DNA from: Selenomonadaceae bacterium
GTDB taxonomy: Bacteria; Bacillota; Negativicutes; Selenomonadales; Selenomonadaceae
Assembly (NCBI GenBank): GCA_030523645.1
Contig: JAUNIB010000008.1
Span: forward strand, 1 to 64,000
DNA: 64,000 nt
Direction of reading: 5' to 3'
Positions 4,513 through 14,669 of the stretch are shown piece by piece. A program made the translations under genes and the position numbers. The notes under the pieces are model-generated. The model did not search any database. It was not told the DNA's origin and worked only from the letters and a program-made list of their open reading frames with translations. Each line of letters begins with the position of its first letter. Position 1 is the first letter of the stretch.

Positions 4513-5940
4513 CTACATATCCGCCCAATTTCGCTTCCGCACATCCCATTTAGGGAAATAAAAGCCAAACCCGTAGTTTTCTTTTAGAGTCAGATGCTCC
4601 GGCAGATTTTTCAGCCCTATATGGATATGCGCCATGTAATCTCGTACATTATCATGGCACAATCCACCAACCGGCAGCCGGAAGCTGCAGCTCCCCCCCG
4701 GTGCAACGGCACCACTGGTCAGCGTCCATGTCTTCTTCGTCGTATCGCTTTTATACTCCGCCTCTATCTGCGGATGCTCCCAGATTATCTTGCTGTTGTT
4801 CACCAGCCGCAGCTCTATCTCCCATCCATCCGGGAAATAGACAGCGAAATCTCCCACCGGAGAGATTTTCGGCCCTCGCCGCCAACTGCTAACCTCATCA
4901 GCCGATAAAAAATAATTCAAGCCTGTCAGTTCCTGCCCATTCACATACAGTTTTCCATCCATATAATTGTCAAGCACAGAATCCCTTGCATGGCTTTGGT
5001 AATCCTCTCTCAGCTGCTTCACCTGTTGCTGCAGACTTTCTACGTTAGTTTCATTGGCAGTTTCATTGGACTTTTGCTTGTCTTCTGTCACCTTGCTATC
5101 CTGCTGTCGGCTTTCCACCTTCACCTCACTAGGTTTGTTCTCAGCCGTGTCTTTCTCCTCCGACCGTGGGAAAAGAATCAGCGCCGCCGCACACAATGAC
5201 ACCACCAAAGCCGCTATCATATAGTTGCGGACATTCCCCTTGCTCTGCAGTGCCGCCAGAAGCTCTCCGGCAGATTGATAACGGGCAGCAGGGTCGAGAC
5301 AGCAGCACTTATCCAGCACGGCACTCAGGCTCCCGGGCTCCTGACCAAGCAACTCGCCCATTGTCTTGCCCAGCGCATAGACATCGCTTCTCGCATCAGT
5401 CCGGCCGAACCCATACTGCTCCGGCGGAGCATAACCCCTTGTGCCCAGCAGGCGAGTATCCTGCTCCTTCGGCTCCGACTCCTTCTCTTCATCCGCTAAT
5501 CGGGCCGCACCGAAATCTATAAGCTTCACCCGGCCATCTGACTGCAGTATTATATTGGAAGGTTTAATATCGCGATGCAGAATCCCCGCTCTATGCAGCA
5601 GCTCCAGAGCCTGAGCCAGCTGCACAAAGATTTTCCTTACCTGCGGAGCCGACAGCTTCCCCTCGGTGAGCAGCACTTCGGCCAGCGTCTTTCCGCTGAC
5701 ATATTCCTCCACCACAATCAGCCGGTCATCGCTGTCAGCAATGAAATGAATCTCCGGCCAATACAAAGGTGGTAGTTCTTTCAGGCGCTTCATCAGCGCA
5801 GCGTCCTGCCGGAAATTCCGCCAGATACAGGGACGGCCTGCCGCATCACGAACCAGCCAAACTTCACCCTCGACTCCCTGCTTAAGCTGCTGCAGCTTCT
5901 CATACTGCTCTGCCAGGAAATCCTCAACGAAAGCGTCCAT
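4513..5940 (-). CDS. Membrane-anchored Ser/Thr protein kinase
   Basis: Hanks-type kinase of about 475 aa. The catalytic loop HRDIKPSN, the magnesium-binding DFG (LIDFGAAR) and the APPE activation-segment end are all present. At the beta-3 position, where the ATP-binding lysine normally lies, the sequence reads CIWRNF, so an arginine may replace the lysine. A single membrane helix (YMIAALVVSLCAAALILF) follows the kinase domain. Then comes a charged linker with a coiled coil and an extracytoplasmic region of about 150 residues that I do not recognise. The start at 5940 is chosen over 5973 because AAGGGGGG lies five bases upstream. The gene is divergent from a helix-turn-helix gene at 6019, with only 78 bp between them. 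The kinase is likely a surface sensor. Its substrate is unknown. Confidence 0.85.
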   Translation of the reverse strand: MDAFVEDFLAEQYEKLQQLKQGVEGEVWLVRDAAGRPCIWRNFRQDAALMKRLKELPPLYWPEIHFIADSDDRLIVVEEYVSGKTLAEVLLTEGKLSAPQVRKIFVQLAQALELLHRAGILHRDIKPSNIILQSDGRVKLIDFGAARLADEEKESEPKEQDTRLLGTRGYAPPEQYGFGRTDARSDVYALGKTMGELLGQEPGSLSAVLDKCCCLDPAARYQSAGELLAALQSKGNVRNYMIAALVVSLCAAALILFPRSEEKDTAENKPSEVKVESRQQDSKVTEDKQKSNETANETNVESLQQQVKQLREDYQSHARDSVLDNYMDGKLYVNGQELTGLNYFLSADEVSSWRRGPKISPVGDFAVYFPDGWEIELRLVNNSKIIWEHPQIEAEYKSDTTKKTWTLTSGAVAPGGSCSFRLPVGGLCHDNVRDYMAHIHIGLKNLPEHLTLKENYGFGFYFPKWDVRKRNWADM

Positions 5941-5951
5941 CACTACCCCCC

Positions 5952-5981
5952 TTGCCACATTTTCTTCTTTCATGCTATCAT
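5952..5981 (+). promoter_or_regulatory. Possible promoter of the helix-turn-helix gene
   Basis: TTGCCA (5952-5957) and TATCAT (5976-5981) are spaced 18 bp apart in the 78-bp space between the divergent kinase and helix-turn-helix genes. A minus-strand promoter for the kinase must lie in the same space, so joint control is plausible. Confidence 0.45.
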
Positions 5982-6018
5982 AACTTTATTATCTTAGCAC
6001 CCGCAGGAGACAATGACA

Positions 6019-6447
6019 ATGGAAAAAGACACGGCTGAAATAGCCCACGAAATAAAAAACGCCAAATCCCCGGAGGCTCTGCTCCAAGACCCGGAAAACA
6101 GTCTGCCCCCCATGACTCTGGCTGAGTACCTCACCCAACTCCTCGACGAGCGGAAAATGACGAGATCTCAAATGGCCCGGGCGGCCAGCATAAAGGATAC
6201 CTACTGCTGTCATCTGGTGGACGGCAGGAAGAAATCCACATCCCGGCCAAAGCTGCTGGCCATCGCCGTCGGCCTCTCCCTCTCGGAAAAGGAGACCCAA
6301 AGACTCCTCTACTACGGTGGCCACCCCCCACTCTACCCCAGAGCCGATTGGGACAAAATCATCCTCTATGCGCTCCAGCACCATCTTTCGGTCATTGATA
6401 CAAACATAATGCTAATCAAGCTGAACCTCCAGCCATACCTCGAATGA
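6019..6447 (+). CDS. Helix-turn-helix protein paired with the Ser/Thr kinase
   Basis: Protein of about 142 aa, soluble, with no signal peptide. Residues about 33-85 (TLAEYLTQLLDERKMTRSQM onward, then HLVDGRKKSTSRPKLLAIA) fit a Cro/C1-type helix-turn-helix fold. The remaining C-terminal half (PRADWDKIILYALQHHLS) is unassigned. AGGAG at 6005-6009 favours the second ATG (6019) over that at 6013. From the divergent arrangement I infer that it is a DNA-binding partner, possibly a target of the kinase. Ser and Thr residues are available but no phosphosite is evident. The gene ends before a clear terminator. Confidence 0.7.
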   Translation: MEKDTAEIAHEIKNAKSPEALLQDPENSLPPMTLAEYLTQLLDERKMTRSQMARAASIKDTYCCHLVDGRKKSTSRPKLLAIAVGLSLSEKETQRLLYYGGHPPLYPRADWDKIILYALQHHLSVIDTNIMLIKLNLQPYLE

Positions 6448-6543: not shown

Positions 6544-7482
6544 TCATTCGCTGCTCGTTTTCATAATATCTCCCCAATAAAAACATTCCCCTTCTTCATC
6601 CAGCATATAATCTGTCCATCCATTCTCATTATTAGCCGCAAATTGACGCAGCTTAGATGCGGTTCCTTCATCCTTATCGACGCCGTATCCATTTTCATAG
6701 CAATAGGCCAGACGATATTGCGCTTCTGCAAGATTTTGGTCAGCCGCCAATCGATACCACTTGGCCGCCTCATCATAACTCTTCCTTGTCCCGAGTCCCT
6801 TTTCAAAGGCTTCTCCCAGTAAAAACTCTGACAATGGCTCTCCTGTTTTTGCCAAAATCTTTAATCTCACAAACGACCACTCTGTTTCCTTATCTCTCAG
6901 TTCTCTCTCCAAATCAAGCACACGGCGCAAAGAACTGTGATCTCCCTTTACTGCATTTATACGGTATAGCTCAAGTGCCTTATAAACACTCTGTCCTACA
7001 CCCTCACCACGCTCTATGCACCCTGCAAGGTACCATCTGGCAGATTTGCTGCCCCGTTTTTCAGCCATGTCAAACAGCTTTACTGCATTGGCAGGGTTTT
7101 TCTCTACTTCACAGCCTGTCAGGTACAGCACCCCCAGCTTCACCATAGCTGTGACACTGCCTCGCGTCACAGCCTGCTCCAGACATCGAATTCCCCTTAC
7201 TATATCTTTCTCTGTTCCGTGCGCTTTGCAATAGCACCAGCCAGTTTTCGCCAAAGCTCCTGTATCACCTGCGTGCGTAGCCTTCTGGTACCAGGCAAAC
7301 GCCTCCCGATACATTTCTTCATCTGCCATCCAATAATATATATCGCCAAGCAGGCACATTGCCTCTGTATTGCCCTGCTCGGCAGAATGTAAAAGAAGTT
7401 CTTCTGCCTCTTTCAAGCAGTCGCCTGTACCATCATTCTGCATTGCGTACTGCAATAGCCGTTTTGCCTCTTTTATAGACAT
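6544..7482 (-). CDS. Sel1-like (TPR-type) repeat protein
   Basis: Protein of 312 aa built of Sel1-like helical repeats. Repeat signatures include AEQGNTEAMCLLGDIYY, GDTGALAKTGWCYCKAHG, GSVTAMVKLGVLYLTGC, GSKSARWYLAGCIERGEGV and NLAEAQYRLAYCYENGYGV. No signal peptide or membrane segment is seen, so it is probably a cytoplasmic protein-protein interaction scaffold. The best ribosome site (AAGGAG) is 17 bases before the ATG, which is unusually far, and no better in-frame start exists. It lies 32 bp downstream of the XRE gene at 7515 on the same strand, so the two form a small operon. The partner is unknown. The setting suggests a link to the GTPase island. Confidence 0.85.
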   Translation of the reverse strand: MSIKEAKRLLQYAMQNDGTGDCLKEAEELLLHSAEQGNTEAMCLLGDIYYWMADEEMYREAFAWYQKATHAGDTGALAKTGWCYCKAHGTEKDIVRGIRCLEQAVTRGSVTAMVKLGVLYLTGCEVEKNPANAVKLFDMAEKRGSKSARWYLAGCIERGEGVGQSVYKALELYRINAVKGDHSSLRRVLDLERELRDKETEWSFVRLKILAKTGEPLSEFLLGEAFEKGLGTRKSYDEAAKWYRLAADQNLAEAQYRLAYCYENGYGVDKDEGTASKLRQFAANNENGWTDYMLDEEGECFYWGDIMKTSSE

Positions 7483-7514: not shown

Positions 7515-7778
7515 TTACCACATATTCTTATCAGCATCCGAGAACCGCAAAAACTCCATCGGCTCCACATCCATAGTTTCTGCCAAAATGAACAGCATAT
7601 CTATAGACAGATGGTCATTGTAGTCGCCGCGCTCAATCCTGCTCAGTGTGCTGGGACTGATATTTGCCGCTTTGGCCAAATCTGTCTGACTCATTTTCTT
7701 GATTGTGCGGTAGTAAGCGAGCTTTGCACCTATCTGACGAAACATCATTTCCCGTCTGTTATTCACGAGCCACCCCAT
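7515..7778 (-). CDS. XRE-family transcriptional regulator (paralogue 1)
   Basis: Small regulator of 87 aa, essentially one Cro/C1-type helix-turn-helix. IGAKLAYYRTIKKMSQTDLA, then the recognition helix region NISPSTLSRIERGDYND, then LSIDMLFILAETMDVEP. It is clearly paralogous to the regulator at 14105: both begin MG, share RQ(I/L)GAK(L/I)AY, S.LSRIE/STVSKIE, YND.LSI.ML, and end F.D..K.MW. The AAAGGAG ribosome site directly abuts the ATG, so a GTG four codons later is an alternative start. Upstream lie a 35-bp palindrome and a terminator that recur at 13.9 and 14.5 kb. I infer that this protein or its paralogue binds those palindromes. Confidence 0.85.
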   Translation of the reverse strand: MGWLVNNRREMMFRQIGAKLAYYRTIKKMSQTDLAKAANISPSTLSRIERGDYNDHLSIDMLFILAETMDVEPMEFLRFSDADKNMW

Positions 7779-7828
7779 CTCCTTTCACTACCTATAGATA
7801 TTATTCGCCAAAACCAGGCAAAATCATT

Positions 7829-7863
7829 TGTGAAAACTCTTACTACCTGTCCCAGTTTTCACA
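7829..7863 (-). promoter_or_regulatory. Palindromic operator candidate, module A
   Basis: A perfect 10-bp inverted repeat TGTGAAAACT (7829-7838) and AGTTTTCACA (7854-7863) is separated by 15 bp. It lies about 50 bp upstream of the XRE1 start. Copies with the same 35-bp geometry lie at 13898-13932 and 14538-14572. No convincing -35/-10 pair could be assigned downstream. Confidence 0.6.
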
Positions 7864-7879
7864 TCCCTTTAATATCATA

Positions 7880-7914
7880 CAAAAATCCCGGCAGGCTTTG
7901 TTGTCCTGCCGGGA
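7880..7914 (-). terminator. Terminator of the GTPase operon (module A)
   Basis: The stem TCCCGGCAGG/CCTGCCGGGA (7886-7895 with 7905-7914) is followed, on the minus strand, by five T. It lies 90 bp after the stop of the GTPase gene at 8005. The same hairpin recurs at 13947 and 14588. Confidence 0.85.
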
Positions 7915-8004
7915 CAAAATCATACAAATTGTTTGAACTACAGCCGAGGCAATCACCACCCCGCTTTATGTCAGCGGTGCGCCACCATTGACGCAGTTAT
8001 AACT

Positions 8005-9717
8005 TCATTTGGTCATCTGCACTGCCAACTTACTGTCCAACCAAACATATTCATCATAAATATTGCTGACTTCATCGAATGTCTGCTTTCTGTTCTGTGC
8101 CAGATTATTAAGATTATTTAATTCATTGTTAATTGGCTCTTCCAACTTTGCGAAAATAGTCTGAACCGTCTTTTGGCTTTCCTGCTTCAAGCTGTCCGCA
8201 ATCTCCTCTGACATGCAGACAAACTTCTGCCTAAGCTCCTGCTGAGCCTGAAGCTCCGCCTCTGCAAGCCTTCTGCTGTATTCAGCCTGTCGCTCGTCTT
8301 CAGCTCGCTGTCTGTCAGCCTCGCCGTCTGTCCAACTAATCAGCGACTTAACGACCGAGATTCCAGTCACAATCCAGCCCGCAGGCCCGAGCCATGGCAG
8401 AATCGGGCCAAGCATGGGAAGGACGGCCTTTCCTATTGCCGTTTTTGCAGCAACAGCCAATACTGCTTGTCCTGTCGTACTGGCTAATGCTTCACCGACA
8501 GTAATAGCTGCTGCGCCCAGAGCATCCATCTTCCCGATTAATACTTCAATATTATTTTTTGCATCATCAAGCTCAATCTCTGAAATCTGTATATTACCAG
8601 CACCGACCGCTTTATTGGTCAGTTCCGCCTGAAGCTCCAACAAATCCTGCTTCATCGTCTCGACATCCTGACCAAACTCCTGCAGATATTCTTCCATTTC
8701 CTTCTGCAGTTCATCCTGTACTTGGGTGCACAGTTTTTCCAATGCCTGACTTATTTCCCGCTGAAGCTCCTCATCCTCAACATCTCGTTTTTCCCAGATA
8801 AGCATCGGCATTTCTTTACTGAATCGTGATGTCTGCTTTTCAATAAAATCCGCCAGCCTATCATCAATAGACAACCTTTGCTTGTGCAATCGGTTTATAA
8901 ATTTACCAAGCCTATCAAGCTCTGCCGAATCCTGTCTACTAAGTGTCTCCAGTATCTGTTGCAGCCCAGTTTCTACCTCAACAATGCCGTTATGCAGCAC
9001 CTCAAAAGTGCTTGTCCTCCTAAGCTCGCTGAGAATAACCTTCTCCAGCTCAGGCATACAGCTTCTCTCTAAAAGACCGTTCTTATTTTCCAGTCGTCCT
9101 TTTCGTGCTCGTCTTGCATTGACCGCTACAATACTGTATTTGTCCTCTGCTACCTCAATACCTTCCAGCTGCATGTTCTTTATCACTTGCTGCTTCAAGG
9201 CTGTCATTCTTCCATCGTCTTTACCCAAAATACCATCTTTATCATTGAGTACGATGATAAGACGCTTACCCTTTTCTATGATAGACTTCATTCTCTCATA
9301 GTTCTGACGCCGCTCCAAAGAACCATTGCTGCTCATGACAAACAGTACCACATCGGCTTGTGGTAAATACTCTGCCGTAATCTCTTCATCAGCCACCGGC
9401 CCACCTACACCGGGAGTATCCGCCAGCCGATATCCGTTCCATTCGTAGCAGGACACCTCCTTGGTGGTAGGTTCATCGGCTACATCAGCCAAATCATTCT
9501 GCATCAGCTCATTGATGATGCTGCTTTTACCCGCATTATAAATTCCGTACACCATAATCTGCGGTCTTATATTATTTAGTTTTTTACTGTATATTTCCTC
9601 GATAGCTGCCAAAGCATCTGCCACACCCTCCTCTCTGGAGTATGGTGCCAGTGCTTCTTTTAAGGAAGTATAATTCTGCCCCAACTTTCCCTGATAATCA
9701 ACAAAAATACTTTCCAT
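8005..9717 (-). CDS. Dynamin-like large GTPase with hydrophobic segment (LeoA-like)
   Basis: GTPase of 570 aa. The G1 P-loop GIYNAGKSS is at 58-66, a conserved threonine pair (EPTTKE) in the G2 region at 82-87, G3 DTPGVGG at 100-106, and NDKD in the G4 position near 158. Long helical and coiled-coil stretches follow. A hydrophobic region (about 393-457, including AVLPMLGPILPWLGPAGWIV) could insert in or touch membrane. A charged coiled-coil tail ends the protein. Size and layout match bacterial dynamin-like proteins of the LeoA type. It is the last gene of a four-gene minus-strand operon: small protein, two other GTPases, then this one, with 24 bp to the preceding gene. In E. coli, LeoA, LeoB and LeoC are dynamin-like proteins encoded together, and related systems are reported to protect against phage. 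That role here is inference. Confidence 0.85.
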   Translation of the reverse strand: MESIFVDYQGKLGQNYTSLKEALAPYSREEGVADALAAIEEIYSKKLNNIRPQIMVYGIYNAGKSSIINELMQNDLADVADEPTTKEVSCYEWNGYRLADTPGVGGPVADEEITAEYLPQADVVLFVMSSNGSLERRQNYERMKSIIEKGKRLIIVLNDKDGILGKDDGRMTALKQQVIKNMQLEGIEVAEDKYSIVAVNARRARKGRLENKNGLLERSCMPELEKVILSELRRTSTFEVLHNGIVEVETGLQQILETLSRQDSAELDRLGKFINRLHKQRLSIDDRLADFIEKQTSRFSKEMPMLIWEKRDVEDEELQREISQALEKLCTQVQDELQKEMEEYLQEFGQDVETMKQDLLELQAELTNKAVGAGNIQISEIELDDAKNNIEVLIGKMDALGAAAITVGEALASTTGQAVLAVAAKTAIGKAVLPMLGPILPWLGPAGWIVTGISVVKSLISWTDGEADRQRAEDERQAEYSRRLAEAELQAQQELRQKFVCMSEEIADSLKQESQKTVQTIFAKLEEPINNELNNLNNLAQNRKQTFDEVSNIYDEYVWLDSKLAVQMTK

Positions 9718-9741
9718 CTCTCTACTCCCAACTGGTTATCT

Positions 9742-11535
9742 TCAATATTTTAATGCTCTGAACTGCTTTTCCAGCCCATCAAGTTTCTTCAGCATATCCT
9801 CGGTATATTTTTCCTGAGTCACAAAGTATGTATTCTTGATGTTATCTATATTCTCCGTTATATGCTTTTCCAAGACCTCCTGTAGCATCGGCAATATGGA
9901 CTCGATGAAGCTGTTAACATTTGTCCCCATATCAATGCTTTGCTTGACTTTGCTGGTTTTCGTGAAACGGTCATAATACTTTTTCCCGAAGAAAGATAGC
10001 ACATTTTCCCAGAAGCCCTCCGGATCACGCTCTTCATAATATGCCTCTTCGTAGGACTTCTCCTGCTCCTTAATCTCCTTATGAATACCATTGGTTTTCA
10101 GCTTCATCTGCAACGGAGAAATCGCCTGCTCACGATAAGAAGTTATGATATCCCCAACAGCCTCATTTATTTCCTTGGCTATCTGCGGAGAGATAATTTC
10201 CATCAGCCGCTTGGAGATTTCTGCATCACTCAAATCTTTACCGGTCGTATCTACCTCCCTGCCCCATTTCCTCAGCTGCGACTTCACGGTAAGCTCCATC
10301 GTCTTCTGAATGTCCTTGACGATGTACGCCTTTTTATCATCCAGCTTCTTCTTGCCGCTTTCTATTTCATTTCTTATGCCGAGGAAGTTCTCTCTGAGCG
10401 CAGCCACACTCACACCACCATCAGGGTCGGCGATTATGTTCTCAATAAATGCATTCAAAGTCTTTTTCGGTTTTTCCTGCTTCAGCTTTATCGCATTGTC
10501 TCCCGTCTTCGCCGCGATAAGCTTCATTAAGGTATCAATATTGCCTTCTTTGAACTGCGCCTCGTTATTGTTTATAAGCCCCTCTCTCGACAAAATTGAC
10601 GAAACGCTTATGGCAGAATATTTCTCAGGAGGAATATCCGGAGATTTTTCCTTTATCTGTCGGCAAATATGTTCCTCCTGCCTCCTTCGTGTCTCCTTGT
10701 CCTTTGGAATCCAGTGGATTACAAGATTTCCATTGTCATCCTCATCCTCATCATTCACGTCGGATTTTGTAATGACGACAAGTGCCGTCTGATTCTCCTT
10801 GTGCAGCTGACAGATATATTTCATATCTTCCATCAATCCCGGCTCTGATGAGTTCATCAGGAATATACACATATCAGTATAGGGTAAGTATTCCTGTACC
10901 ATCTCATCCATTGAGCGGCCATCCTGTTTATCCGTGAGCTTGGCTACCGCTCCTGTGCCGGGAGAATCCATCCAGCGAAGCCCGGACAGCGAGAAATACT
11001 GCATATTTCCGGTAGTGTCCGTATCTCCCTCGGCAAACCATCTGCGCCCCTTATCGTCCACAGTAATTCCGCCGGTGGCTCTCTTCTCGTCCTCCGTCAC
11101 AAATTCCGCAAGGGCGTGACGCTTGTAGGCATTGTCAAACTCCGTCTCCATCCAGGGCTTTCCGGCAAAAAAATTCCCCAAAGAGCTTTTTCCCGCTTTT
11201 ACCGCACCAAAGACCAGAACCAGCAAATGCTTTTCATGCTTGTGCATGAATTCCGTCCCCTTACGGCTACGTTCAATTTGTGCCTGCCAGTCTGACATAG
11301 CATCCTGCACCTGCTTTACTGCCTCAGCCGCAGCCTTCTCCAATGCACTTCCTTTCTTTGCAGACACCTTTTTCTGAAGTGGCGTCTCACTCTGTTCAGC
11401 GAATTTCCGCAATACATCAAAGGCTTTCTCCCGTCTGCCATCTATTTCCCCGGAAAAAGTTGACAGCTTCTCCTGCATATCGTCCAGCCGCTGAAAGAAA
11501 TCTGCCGCTACCTCGGCCATGTAGTTTTTTCCCAT
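9742..11535 (-). CDS. Dynamin-like GTPase, soluble, second of operon
   Basis: Protein of 597 aa with about 100 helical residues before the GTPase domain. G1 GAVKAGKSS is at 110-118, a TGGIT segment in the G2 region near 154, G3 DSPGTG at 190-195 and a canonical G4 TKSD at 256-259. The C-terminal 300 residues are predicted helical (for example LRENFLGIRNEIESGKKKLD) with no membrane helix. One aromatic patch (FWENVLSFFGKKYYDRF) may be a lipid-touching or hinge region. AAGGGGG lies seven bases before the ATG. The gene starts 12 bp after the stop of the GTPase gene at 11548 and ends 24 bp before the next one, which implies co-translation. It is distinct in sequence from its two neighbours, so the three are not simple recent duplicates. 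Confidence 0.85.
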   Translation of the reverse strand: MGKNYMAEVAADFFQRLDDMQEKLSTFSGEIDGRREKAFDVLRKFAEQSETPLQKKVSAKKGSALEKAAAEAVKQVQDAMSDWQAQIERSRKGTEFMHKHEKHLLVLVFGAVKAGKSSLGNFFAGKPWMETEFDNAYKRHALAEFVTEDEKRATGGITVDDKGRRWFAEGDTDTTGNMQYFSLSGLRWMDSPGTGAVAKLTDKQDGRSMDEMVQEYLPYTDMCIFLMNSSEPGLMEDMKYICQLHKENQTALVVITKSDVNDEDEDDNGNLVIHWIPKDKETRRRQEEHICRQIKEKSPDIPPEKYSAISVSSILSREGLINNNEAQFKEGNIDTLMKLIAAKTGDNAIKLKQEKPKKTLNAFIENIIADPDGGVSVAALRENFLGIRNEIESGKKKLDDKKAYIVKDIQKTMELTVKSQLRKWGREVDTTGKDLSDAEISKRLMEIISPQIAKEINEAVGDIITSYREQAISPLQMKLKTNGIHKEIKEQEKSYEEAYYEERDPEGFWENVLSFFGKKYYDRFTKTSKVKQSIDMGTNVNSFIESILPMLQEVLEKHITENIDNIKNTYFVTQEKYTEDMLKKLDGLEKQFRALKY

Positions 11536-11547
11536 AGCTATTCCCCC

Positions 11548-13563
11548 TTAATATTGTGCAAGCATATTGTCGATGGCGCGCAGTACCTTTTTGGAGTTTT
11601 GGTACTTCATGTAAACAGAACCCAGACCGACCTTTTCCATTAGCCGCTCTTGGTAGGACTCTATATTCTTATTCAAAGCCTCATCTGCATCAACGAACAC
11701 CGCTTGTTCGCCCCAAATTCCCAACTCATGTAAAATACGACCTGCCTCTTTACACTTCGCATTTCTTCTGTGCTCAATAGGTTGTATTATCTTTTTCTTA
11801 ATTTCATCCTGTTTAGCTTCAAGAGCTTTTGCTTTGCGTTCAGTTTCTTCGAATTTTTCCCTGTTAGCTTTGTTTTTCCACAATGCAGTTATTTGCTGCC
11901 CAATTGCCATGACTCTATCCCATGCTTCATTCCATTCATTGCTAATTGCATGTACTTCTTTCATATGCACACTAACCGCATTATATCTTTCTTCTACAGC
12001 GGCTTCCGCTGAGCTAAGCAATTTCTGCCACGCACTATGGCACTCGTCATTGATATTTTCCATACGCTCTCTTAGCTTCTGCAGAATATCCTTTGCCTCG
12101 TCATCCGCCTGTCTCTGTACAGCTTCCTTAAGCTCATCTATATCTATATCAAAAGAGTCGGCATATTGGGTTAGGATTACCATCTGCCTGTTTATTCCCG
12201 GTTTGGTGTTGGCAGCCTTTGTTATTTCTTTTAAGCTTTTGGCAGCTTTCAGCAAACAACCTACTTTTGCCTCCTTTTTAGTAACAGCAAATTCCTGCTC
12301 TGCTTCAACTTCATCAAGCTTTCTATACAATTCAGACATTTCTACATCTTTATCATCTGGCCAGATTCCTACCTTAACCATCTTTAACTTTATTTCATCC
12401 CACAATTCTCCTTGCTCGTCAAAAATATTCAAATGCCTCTTATCAAGCGACCATATTTCTGCATCAATCTGTCTAATACGTTCTTCTAACGCTTCATTCT
12501 CCCTTTCCAATTCCCCTTCACTACGCGCAAGGAACCTCCCCACAAATCCCAAAAATCCACCCGTATAATGAACTAAACTTTCGTTAGTATTTTTCATTAT
12601 CTTTTCGTTGATTTCTTCATTTTCTTTATTACGTGCATCTATTTTCTTTTGCAGGTCATCGCTTTCTTGTCCTAACAAACCATACCTATTTTTCCAATCT
12701 GCTATATATTCCCTAACACCTTTTATGTCAACATTCTTATCGTTTCCTTTACTATTTTTGAGCTCTGACGCACAATCTTCCATTGCAGGGATTATTTGCT
12801 GCATCATTTCTTCGTTCTGCTTCTCCTGCAGCCCCACCTTGTCGCTCTGCCACTCCTCGCTCTTATCCTCTATGTAATCAATCAGCTCAGGTATGCCACT
12901 CAATGCCACCAAGCCCATCTTGTTTTCCTGCATACCCTTTTGATAGCGTCTATTGGATATACAGAACACCGGAAAGGCTCCTGTGTCACAGGCTGTTTTT
13001 ATCGTGCTCACCGATGCATTCTTGATGTTCTCCAATGCCTCCGGGCTTACTGAATCCCTAAAGCTTAAAACGAGACAAAAATGTTTACCGAAATACTCTT
13101 TCCCGATAATCTCTTTCATCTTATTGATTGCTTTTATTTCGCTTTCATGCAACTCGCCAACCTTAACGGTATGCACAAAAAGTATCATGTTGGCCTTTTT
13201 GTAGCCCTCATAAGCAACTGTATTATCATCATCTGTCGCATCAAGCCCCGGTGTATCCATAAGAATAAAATTATCCTTCCACGGCACTTCCCTGTTTTCC
13301 ACCGTACAGCGAACATCTTCTACTGCAAGCTCATTTTTCCCAAGCAGAGAATTAAACAGACTGCTTTTGCCGTGATTCATGCGGCCGGCATTCACTATAT
13401 ATACCTTTTCTCCATCCGCTTGCGTGGTTTCGGCTTTTTCAAACAGTTTACTTGTAAAGTCATCCAGACTTGCCGAAAAAGCTTCCGGTGCATCGTCACT
13501 ATGTTTGTTGAACCAGTCGACAAAAATATCGCCATACTTTGTATTAAGAGCTTTCTTTTTCAC
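11548..13563 (-). CDS. Dynamin-like GTPase with long coiled coils, first GTPase of operon
   Basis: About 671 aa from the GTG at 13563. The G1 P-loop GRMNHGKSS is at about 60-68 and G3 DTPGLDA at about 103-109. The position of G4 reads LSFRDS rather than N/TKxD, so guanine recognition may be weakened or shifted. The rest is highly charged, with two coiled-coil blocks flanking a small glycine-rich hydrophobic hinge (YTGGFLGFVGRFLA). The frame is open to 13608, but GGAGG eight bases before the GTG at 13563 marks the likely start. An ATG at 13578 is an alternative. It follows the 59-residue gene by 64 bp. Such GTPases usually act as oligomers on membranes. A heteromeric complex with the two downstream GTPases is inferred from the operon. 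Confidence 0.82.
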   Translation of the reverse strand: MKKKALNTKYGDIFVDWFNKHSDDAPEAFSASLDDFTSKLFEKAETTQADGEKVYIVNAGRMNHGKSSLFNSLLGKNELAVEDVRCTVENREVPWKDNFILMDTPGLDATDDDNTVAYEGYKKANMILFVHTVKVGELHESEIKAINKMKEIIGKEYFGKHFCLVLSFRDSVSPEALENIKNASVSTIKTACDTGAFPVFCISNRRYQKGMQENKMGLVALSGIPELIDYIEDKSEEWQSDKVGLQEKQNEEMMQQIIPAMEDCASELKNSKGNDKNVDIKGVREYIADWKNRYGLLGQESDDLQKKIDARNKENEEINEKIMKNTNESLVHYTGGFLGFVGRFLARSEGELERENEALEERIRQIDAEIWSLDKRHLNIFDEQGELWDEIKLKMVKVGIWPDDKDVEMSELYRKLDEVEAEQEFAVTKKEAKVGCLLKAAKSLKEITKAANTKPGINRQMVILTQYADSFDIDIDELKEAVQRQADDEAKDILQKLRERMENINDECHSAWQKLLSSAEAAVEERYNAVSVHMKEVHAISNEWNEAWDRVMAIGQQITALWKNKANREKFEETERKAKALEAKQDEIKKKIIQPIEHRRNAKCKEAGRILHELGIWGEQAVFVDADEALNKNIESYQERLMEKVGLGSVYMKYQNSKKVLRAIDNMLAQY

Positions 13564-13627
13564 TTTTCTTTCCTCCATATCCTCTATTATCGCTACAATA
13601 ATTAGCAATGTATTCCGCTAGCGTTCC

Positions 13628-13807
13628 TCACCCCATCTTCGATGCAGTCATATTGACCACCTTAATCGAAGTCGGTATTCTCTGCATTACCTTTGCCTTT
13701 GCATCCATTATGGAGCTGGCCTGTACCGTTGTTGAGTGTCGGCTGCCGGTTTTTGCATTTGGATTATTTGCCGATTTTTGCTCCCAAGTTACCCTATACT
13801 GTGCCAT
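13628..13807 (-). CDS. Small protein of unknown function leading the GTPase operon
   Basis: A 59-residue reading frame that starts MAQYRVTWEQKS and ends VVNMTASKMG. GGGAGGAAATAATC directly precedes the ATG, a strong ribosome site with good spacing. Composition and pattern suggest two short beta strands (YRVTWEQ, STTVQASS), one helix (IMDAKAKVMQRIP) and a last strand (SIKVVNMTA), giving a compact beta-beta-alpha-beta domain. No signal peptide or cysteine motif is seen. It is the first gene after the module B palindrome, on the same strand as the three GTPases and 64 bp upstream of them. I do not recognise the family. It could be a partner, adaptor or sensor for the GTPases. Confidence 0.7.
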   Translation of the reverse strand: MAQYRVTWEQKSANNPNAKTGSRHSTTVQASSIMDAKAKVMQRIPTSIKVVNMTASKMG

Positions 13808-13897
13808 GATTATTTCCTCCCAATTTATATTTCATTTCACTTTCGGGACTGGCGGACATCCCAAATAAAATATTCGCCAACTCCCGTCATACCCATT

Positions 13898-13932
13898 TGT
13901 GAAAAACCTCATGCCCATGCTCAGTTTTCATA
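13898..13932 (-). promoter_or_regulatory. Palindromic operator candidate, module B
   Basis: Left arm TGTGAAAAAC (13898-13907) and right arm AGTTTTCATA (13923-13932) form the same 35-bp geometry as module A with a few mismatches. It lies about 90 bp upstream of the small gene at 13807 and so in front of the whole GTPase operon. The bases TTGGCGAATA further downstream (minus strand) are shared with module A. Confidence 0.55.
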
Positions 13933-13946
13933 TCCATTCACAGAAT

Positions 13947-13982
13947 ACAAAAATCCCGGCAGGTTTTGTTGTCCTGCCGGGA
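13947..13982 (-). terminator. Terminator of XRE paralogue 2 transcript (module B)
   Basis: The stem TCCCGGCAGG/CCTGCCGGGA (13954-13963 with 13973-13982) is followed by five T on the minus strand. It is nearly identical to the hairpins at 7880 and 14588. It lies about 120 bp past the stop of the XRE gene at 14105. Confidence 0.8.
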
Positions 13983-14104
13983 CAAAATCACTATCTCATG
14001 CAACCTAAATCTTCCAGCCCGGCGATATCATTTGACTTACCTTTTCTGCTGTTAAGTTGACCTCACAAAATTACGATCTGCATTATGCTAATCGCGGGAT
14101 ACAT

Positions 14105-14386
14105 CTATATTTCATTCGCCGTTATTGTCCTGTCCCACATCTTCTTTTCAAAGTCATTGAAGTGGAGCAGCAGTGACAAATCAACATTTAGAGCATTTGC
14201 TATGCTGACCAGCATCGGGATACTCAAACTGTCGTTATATGAGCCGCATTCTATTTTCGAGACTGTAGACTGGGTGCTGTTTATCCTCTTAGCCAGCTCT
14301 GATTGGCTGATACCTGCCAGAGTTCTAAAATATGCGATTTTTGCGCCAAGCTGCCGCAGAACTATTTTAGGCTCTGTATGCCCCAT
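14105..14386 (-). CDS. XRE-family transcriptional regulator (paralogue 2)
   Basis: Regulator of 93 aa with one Cro/C1-type helix-turn-helix (LGAKIAYFRTLAGISQSELA, recognition region NSTQSTVSKIECGSYND). It is a paralogue of the regulator at 7515. A short tail (WDRTITANEI) follows the shared F.DFEKKMW end. The ATG is preceded by AAGGATGTGTAGAAG, a moderate ribosome site. The gene stands alone between terminator modules B and C, upstream of the GTPase operon. An unusually long leader (about 150 bp from palindrome C) contains three copies of a TATGCGATA half-site. These are candidates for autoregulation. Confidence 0.85.
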   Translation of the reverse strand: MGHTEPKIVLRQLGAKIAYFRTLAGISQSELAKRINSTQSTVSKIECGSYNDSLSIPMLVSIANALNVDLSLLLHFNDFEKKMWDRTITANEI

Positions 14387-14420
14387 CTTCTACACATCCT
14401 TCATCTCGCTCATAAAATAA

Positions 14421-14493
14421 TTATCGCATACTATTAAGCTCGACACTAATGCTTTATATCGCATATTCTTTCATAGATAGGAATATGCGATAT
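14421..14493 (-). promoter_or_regulatory. Inverted-repeat cluster in the XRE2 leader
   Basis: A perfect 13-bp inverted repeat (ATATCGCATATTC at 14456-14468 and its complement at 14481-14493, 12-bp loop) is accompanied by a third half-site TTATCGCATA at 14421-14430. On the plus strand the hairpin ends in five T and could also act as a weak terminator. On the minus strand it lies in the presumed 5' leader or operator of the XRE2 gene. Confidence 0.5.
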
Positions 14494-14537
14494 TTTTCTC
14501 TTCAGTATTTATTCTCCCTAAGCCTAACTAAAACATT

Positions 14538-14572
14538 TGTGAAAATTCCCATGCCTCAGCCTAGTTTTCACA
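14538..14572 (-). promoter_or_regulatory. Palindromic operator candidate, module C
   Basis: TGTGAAAATT (14538-14547) and AGTTTTCACA (14563-14572) give the third copy of the 35-bp palindrome. It lies 150 bp upstream of the XRE2 start and just after the terminator of the M15 peptidase gene. Confidence 0.55.
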
Positions 14573-14587
14573 TCCTTGTGACAGAAT

Positions 14588-14623
14588 ACAAAAATCCCGG
14601 CAGGTTTTGTTGTCCTGCCGGGA
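14588..14623 (-). terminator. Terminator of the M15 peptidase gene (module C)
   Basis: The stem TCCCGGCAGG/CCTGCCGGGA (14595-14604 with 14614-14623) has five A before it on the plus strand, so five T follow on the minus strand. It lies about 45 bp past the stop codon at 14670. Confidence 0.85.
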
Positions 14624-14669
14624 CAAATTCATATCATTTTTTTCTTTCATCTGCATAGTCTATCAGCCA

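What the first reader, a model, noticed from the sequence alone, without database searches (positions are those of the whole stretch)
7825..14627. One terminator-plus-palindrome control module used three times across the GTPase island
At 7825-7918, 13894-13986 and 14534-14627 the same arrangement of about 93 bp recurs. A 35-bp palindrome (TGTGAAAA.. / ..AGTTTTCA) lies 22-23 bp from an identical CCCGGCAGG hairpin with a T5 tail on the minus strand. Each copy ends one minus-strand transcript and starts the next: M15 gene to XRE2, XRE2 to the GTPase operon, GTPase operon to XRE1-Sel1. The modules are the only intergenic sequence shared across the island. With two paralogous XRE genes present, they look like a shared operator set that couples three transcripts. 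I know of no described regulon with this combined layout.
Basis: partly seen in the sequence, partly recalled or inferred. Interest (0 to 1): 0.85.

Follow-up and report, generated by a model that had tools for sequence, protein, structure and literature searches.

The report
Repeated control switch in GTPase island
Three copies of a 100-base unit, a transcription stop signal followed by a probable protein-binding site, sit at the gene boundaries of a bacterial GTPase (probable anti-phage) island, so one small regulator probably controls three transcripts together, much as the switch proteins of restriction systems do.

Summary
Three ~100-bp units (7825-7924, 13894-13990, 14534-14634) share a terminator hairpin and a 35-bp gapped palindrome, and occur nowhere else in the 2.3-Mb genome. 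The hairpin (41/44 columns identical) and both palindrome arms (17/20) are conserved while the 15-bp gap has diverged (4/15), which points to selection rather than fresh duplication. The hairpin is an ordinary intrinsic terminator with compensatory base changes in related genomes, usually just 3' of a protein-kinase gene that also neighbours this island. The palindrome is most likely a DNA operator: copy 2 no longer folds as RNA but keeps both half-sites. The likeliest binder is XRE1, whose predicted structure best matches restriction-modification controller proteins (C.BclI Z 13.3, C.AhdI, C.Esp1396I). XRE2 has a separate conserved site, so the idea that both XREs share the palindrome is not supported. 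The sequence is not conserved in relatives, but the layout is: in two other genomes an XRE homologue and neighbouring operons share a different repeated element. Binding, direction of control and function are untested. I class it as a new variant of a known kind: a controller-protein-like local regulon governing dynamin-like GTPases.

The parts
7887..7913 (-). terminator hairpin of module 1 (CCCGGCAGG-N9-CCTGCCGGG, T5 tail), 92 nt after the GTP3 stop codon
7829..7863 (.). 35-bp palindrome of module 1, arms TGTGAAAACT, gap 15, upstream of XRE1; perfect arms
13955..13981 (-). terminator hairpin of module 2, downstream of XRE2
13898..13932 (.). 35-bp palindrome of module 2 (half-sites TGTGAAAAAC / TATGAAAACT), upstream of the 59-aa ORF and GTPase operon
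14596..14622 (-). terminator hairpin of module 3, 47 nt after the M15 peptidase stop codon
14538..14572 (.). 35-bp palindrome of module 3 (half-sites TGTGAAAATT / TGTGAAAACT), upstream of XRE2
7515..7778 (-). XRE1, 87-aa controller-protein-like regulator; proposed binder of the palindrome
   Evidence: Pfam HTH_3; PDB C.BclI, C.AhdI by sequence and predicted fold
14105..14386 (-). XRE2, 93-aa paralogue (about 46% identical to XRE1), with its own conserved upstream site
14456..14493 (.). second palindrome ATATCGCATATTC-12-GAATATGCGATAT, overlapping a block conserved upstream of XRE2 orthologues; proposed XRE2 autoregulatory site
13628..13807 (-). 59-aa ORF, first gene after module 2; relatives in 7 other genomes of the family
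11548..13608 (-). GTP1, dynamin-like/AIG1-like GTPase
9742..11535 (-). GTP2, dynamin-like GTPase (weak Pfam match below cut-off; conserved partner in relatives)
8005..9717 (-). GTP3, LeoA/LeoBC-like dynamin-like GTPase
   Evidence: PADLOC LeoBC 9e-41, LeoA 2e-40
6544..7482 (-). Sel1-repeat protein downstream of XRE1
4513..5973 (-). protein kinase whose relatives carry the same hairpin terminator at their 3' end
6013..6447 (+). 144-aa HTH-like protein divergent from the kinase; marker of the conserved locus (104 of 189 genomes)

Best explanation
Each unit is a transcript boundary. The hairpin is an intrinsic terminator that ends the upstream minus-strand transcript. The 35-bp palindrome is an operator for the next transcript, read as two 10-bp half-sites TGTGAAAACT about 25 bp apart. 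The operator is most likely bound by XRE1, a single-domain regulator with the fold of restriction-modification controller (C) proteins. XRE1 would then regulate its own gene and Sel1, the 59-aa ORF plus GTPase operon, and XRE2, as one local auto-regulated switch. XRE2 adds a separate loop through its own site at 14456-14493. I think XRE1 more likely activates than represses: the palindrome lies about 25 bp upstream of a conserved GAATA block that could be the -10 region, and no -35 consensus is seen. Shown: the units, the terminator structure, their uniqueness, the arm-versus-gap conservation, the fold resemblance. Inferred: binding by XRE1, the promoter position, the direction of control and a defence role.
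For: Units confined to the island. Arms 17/20 columns identical, gap 4/15, hairpin plus tail 41/44, outer flank 6/32. Hairpin: 100% of cells paired and two compensatory pairs in 11 sequences, each copy following a stop codon. Copy 2 palindrome folds no better than shuffles as RNA (z 0.10) yet keeps both half-sites, which favours a DNA site. The perfect palindrome is the one in front of XRE1. XRE1 best matches C.BclI and C.AhdI among solved structures of known function by sequence and C.BclI by predicted fold, Z 13.3 over 75 residues, C.AhdI Z 12.4 over 69. XRE2 orthologues share a different site. G139 repeats a 280-bp hairpin-plus-palindrome unit (arms 9, gap 15) in front of its XRE2 orthologue and a second operon. 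G173 has a different repeated element upstream of its XRE and at three more places. G004/G006/G011 have a 9-15-9 palindrome near the second XRE.
Against: No binding or transcript data. The palindrome sequence is absent from relatives. No minus-strand sigma-70 consensus was found between the palindromes and the genes they precede. Half-sites 25 bp apart seem too far for one XRE dimer, so two dimers must be assumed, and the half-sites are not themselves clear dyads. The excess of 33-35-bp palindromes upstream of XRE homologues is modest (5 clusters, two of them the window's own, against about 1.2 expected) and other spans are in excess too.
Confidence: 0.55

Rival explanations
1. Same operator set, but bound by XRE2, by both XREs or by the 144-aa HTH-like protein beside the kinase.
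For: XRE2 also has a copy upstream; both XREs belong to one subfamily.
Against: XRE2 orthologues with a nearly identical recognition helix (TQST[IV]SK) share another site and lack this palindrome.
Confidence: 0.2
2. The repeats are leftovers of segmental duplication or gene conversion of one intergenic region; only the terminator is functional.
For: Whole units are repeated, including spacer and loop; XRE1 and XRE2 are paralogues.
Against: The 15-bp gap has diverged (4/15) while the arms either side have not (17/20).
Confidence: 0.15
3. The palindrome is an RNA hairpin in a leader, acting in attenuation or mRNA stability.
For: Copies 1 and 3 fold better than shuffles (z -3.9 and -2.5).
Against: Copy 2, in front of the GTPase operon, does not (z 0.10); the gap is not conserved.
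Confidence: 0.05
4. The unit is a mobile repeat or a cassette-boundary recombination site.
For: It separates gene cassettes three times; in G006 two copies of the related hairpin flank inserted genes.
Against: No other copy in the genome; I saw no target-site duplication; always in the orientation of terminator then next gene.
Confidence: 0.05

Closest known systems
Controller (C) proteins of type II restriction-modification systems (C.BclI, C.AhdI, C.Esp1396I, C.Csp231I)
   Same: Single-domain XRE fold of 75-100 aa; site in front of the regulator's own gene and of other genes of the locus; C.Esp1396I covers a 35-bp operator and has three sites (PMC4041747, PMC3758141); C.Csp231I has widely spaced sites (PMC4321490).
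   Different: No restriction or methylase gene among the island proteins scanned; one overall dyad of two 10-bp half-sites instead of two dyad sites; no GACT/AGTC box; controls GTPases; each operator is coupled to a terminator in a repeated unit.
Local regulators of defence islands (RptR, BrxR/CapW, CapH)
   Same: Small HTH regulator at the locus with repeated sites at the promoter (RptR, PMC12255303; WYL regulators, PMC9122601).
   Different: RptR uses three 6-bp palindromes at one promoter and represses; here one element is placed at three separate promoters.
Eleos / LeoABC dynamin-like systems
   Same: GTP3 matches PADLOC LeoBC and LeoA models.
   Different: Three GTPases, a 59-aa ORF, XREs and a nearby kinase; GTP1 and GTP2 match no PADLOC model.

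Membership tests
Controller (C) protein of R-M systems | single-domain XRE/HTH protein of about 75-100 aa with the C-protein fold | tested here: met
   Z 13.3 to C.BclI over 75 residues, top rank; other XRE proteins such as ClgR score almost as high
Controller (C) protein of R-M systems | restriction endonuclease and/or methylase gene in the same operon | tested here: not met
   eight island proteins scanned against Pfam, NCBIfam, PADLOC, PHROGs; no endonuclease or methylase, only an HTH-level hit of XRE2 to one REase model
Controller (C) protein of R-M systems | C-box of two adjacent dyad sites (GACT/AGTC or CTAAG-N5-CTTAG) | tested here: not met
   35-bp length fits, but one overall dyad with half-sites TGTGAAAACT
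Controller (C) protein of R-M systems | regulator binds and autoregulates its own promoter | not testable with these tools
   needs a binding assay; only the position is consistent
Intrinsic (Rho-independent) terminator | stable G+C-rich hairpin followed by a T run, downstream of a stop codon | tested here: met
   compensatory changes in 11 sequences
Eleos / LeoABC defence system | LeoA plus LeoBC-type dynamin-like genes side by side | tested here: inconclusive
   GTP3 matches both models at about 1e-40; GTP1 and GTP2 match none
Mobile repeat (MITE/REP) | further copies dispersed in the genome | tested here: not met
   only three copies in 2.3 Mb, all in the island

The most novel reading that the evidence does not exclude
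A controller-protein-like regulator family, linked to a protein kinase, runs copy-and-paste local regulons: in each genome the XRE has its own operator sequence, and terminator-plus-operator units are duplicated in front of each cargo operon (GTPases here, zinc-ribbon genes in G139), giving modular wiring for exchangeable, probably defensive cargo.
Probability: 0.3. Interest if true: 0.68.

Novelty: new variant of a known kind. Interest (0 to 1): 0.45.

Why it matters
How dynamin-like defence GTPases are kept off and switched on is, as far as I know, little studied. If right, this is a controller-type switch outside restriction-modification, with cargo wired in by duplicated operator units. 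It also names testable pairs: different XRE recognition helices with different operators in one family of genomes, suited to a direct test of co-variation.

Tried and rejected
Palindrome conservation: 380 genomes of the class give background-level hits only. Viral contigs with an exact TGTGAAAA-17-TTTTCACA carry no XRE homologue nearby. Unit in plasmids and phages: none. A general 33-35-bp geometry across XRE homologues: suggestive only. Mobile element: rejected, no dispersed copies. RNA hairpin for the palindrome: copy 2 fails. Promoter scan: no convincing minus-strand promoter.

Full report
WHAT IS THERE. On the minus strand the order is: M15 peptidase, unit 3, XRE2, unit 2, a 59-aa ORF, GTP1, GTP2, GTP3, unit 1, XRE1, Sel1 protein. 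Further along lie a 144-aa HTH-like gene on the plus strand and a protein kinase on the minus strand. The units align over about 100 bp. Segment by segment, identical columns are: hairpin with tail 41/44, spacer 9/16, left arm 9/10, gap 4/15, right arm 8/10, the next AATG 4/4, following 22 columns 8/22, outer flank 6/32. The units occur nowhere else in the 2.3-Mb genome.

TERMINATOR. Each hairpin lies 47-124 nt after a stop codon and has a T5 tail. Folding energies are -22 to -25 kcal/mol, z about -5. A DNA search of 189 genomes of the family found the hairpin half, without the palindrome, in other genera. The places inspected lie just 3' of a relative of the kinase that flanks this island, or close to one (G182, G176, G172, G041, G019, G006). 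In 11 aligned sequences all ten pairs are kept in every sequence, two of them through changes on both sides. This is an ordinary terminator that is conserved in sequence at this locus type.

PALINDROME. Half-sites are TGTGAAAACT with variants TGTGAAAATT, TATGAAAACT and TGTGAAAAAC. As RNA, copies 1 and 3 fold better than shuffles but copy 2 does not (z 0.10), while both half-sites of copy 2 keep the GAAAA core. Arms conserved with the gap diverged is what a protein-bound operator would show.

WHICH PROTEIN. XRE1 and XRE2 belong to one subfamily (GAKIAYYRT ... EKxMW); 74 of 189 genomes have a match to XRE2 at E 1e-12 or better, in many of them within a few kilobases of the kinase-linked 144-aa gene (hit positions; layouts). 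XRE2 orthologues in G139, G006 and G004 share a conserved AT-rich upstream block with window XRE2 that overlaps the palindrome at 14456-14493, and lack TGTGAAAA sites. So XRE2 probably uses its own site, and the TGTGAAAA palindrome, perfect only in front of XRE1, is assigned to XRE1. The XRE1 model (pLDDT 87) has C.BclI, C.AhdI and C.Esp1396I among its best hits; phmmer also finds C.BclI and C.AhdI. ClgR and other XRE proteins score nearly as well, so the fold alone does not make it a controller protein.

SAME LAYOUT ELSEWHERE. In G139 a 280-bp region upstream of the XRE2 orthologue is repeated at 81% identity in front of a zinc-ribbon operon 3 kb away; each copy holds a hairpin and a gapped palindrome, TGCTATATA-15-TATATAGCA, perfect in one copy and with two mismatches in the other. 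In G173 a different element is repeated upstream of the XRE, upstream of a 305-aa gene followed by a relative of the 59-aa ORF, and at two more places. In G141 the order is kinase, terminator, XRE, GTP1, GTP2, GTP3. The sequence therefore differs from island to island while the plan recurs.

DIRECTION OF CONTROL. About 25 bp downstream of the palindrome copies 1 and 2 read GAATAATAT and GAATATTTT and copy 3 GAATAAATA. With no -35 match this suggests an activator position, but the promoter is not established. Controller proteins do both: activation at low and repression at high occupancy (PMC4041747, PMC4824078).

WHAT IS NOT SHOWN. Binding, transcript ends, phage defence and any role of the kinase. 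The class and family of the host are known only as unnamed groups in the tool.

Noticed in passing
window 14456-14493: A second, different palindrome (13-bp arms, 12-bp gap) upstream of XRE2, overlapping a block conserved in XRE2 orthologues of three other genomes.
   Followed up: partly
window 13628-13807 (-): A 59-aa ORF with no Pfam family heads the GTPase operon; relatives in seven other genomes, in G173 next to a kinase and XRE.
   Followed up: partly
L047, L050, L054-L058 and others: A conserved cassette in the family: GTP1 (about 300 aa), about 140 aa, GTP2 (585), 390 aa, 580 aa, GTP3 (570). The window has a shorter version with a longer GTP1.
   Followed up: partly
window 4513-6447; 104 of 189 genomes: A divergent pair of protein kinase and 144-aa HTH-like gene; the HTH-like gene is widespread in the family and the pair is often followed by an XRE and variable cargo, which looks like a hotspot.
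   Followed up: partly
L131 (G006), 3962 and 5601: Two copies of the kinase-type hairpin flank inserted genes, one of 299 aa.
   Followed up: no
L167 (G173), 3699, 6594, 8963, 11500: Four copies of a different repeated upstream element (TTCGTAT..TGTC..TATGCGT), one of them in front of the XRE.
   Followed up: partly
L135 (G121), upstream of the XRE: Repeats of about 250 bp with long G+C-rich inverted arms, resembling a miniature mobile element.
   Followed up: no
L060 (1543-1571) and L056 (6212-6234 on its minus strand): Related palindromes GCATACTC..GAGTATGC upstream of GTPase cassettes in two genera, resembling the CGCATATTC arms upstream of window XRE2.
   Followed up: no
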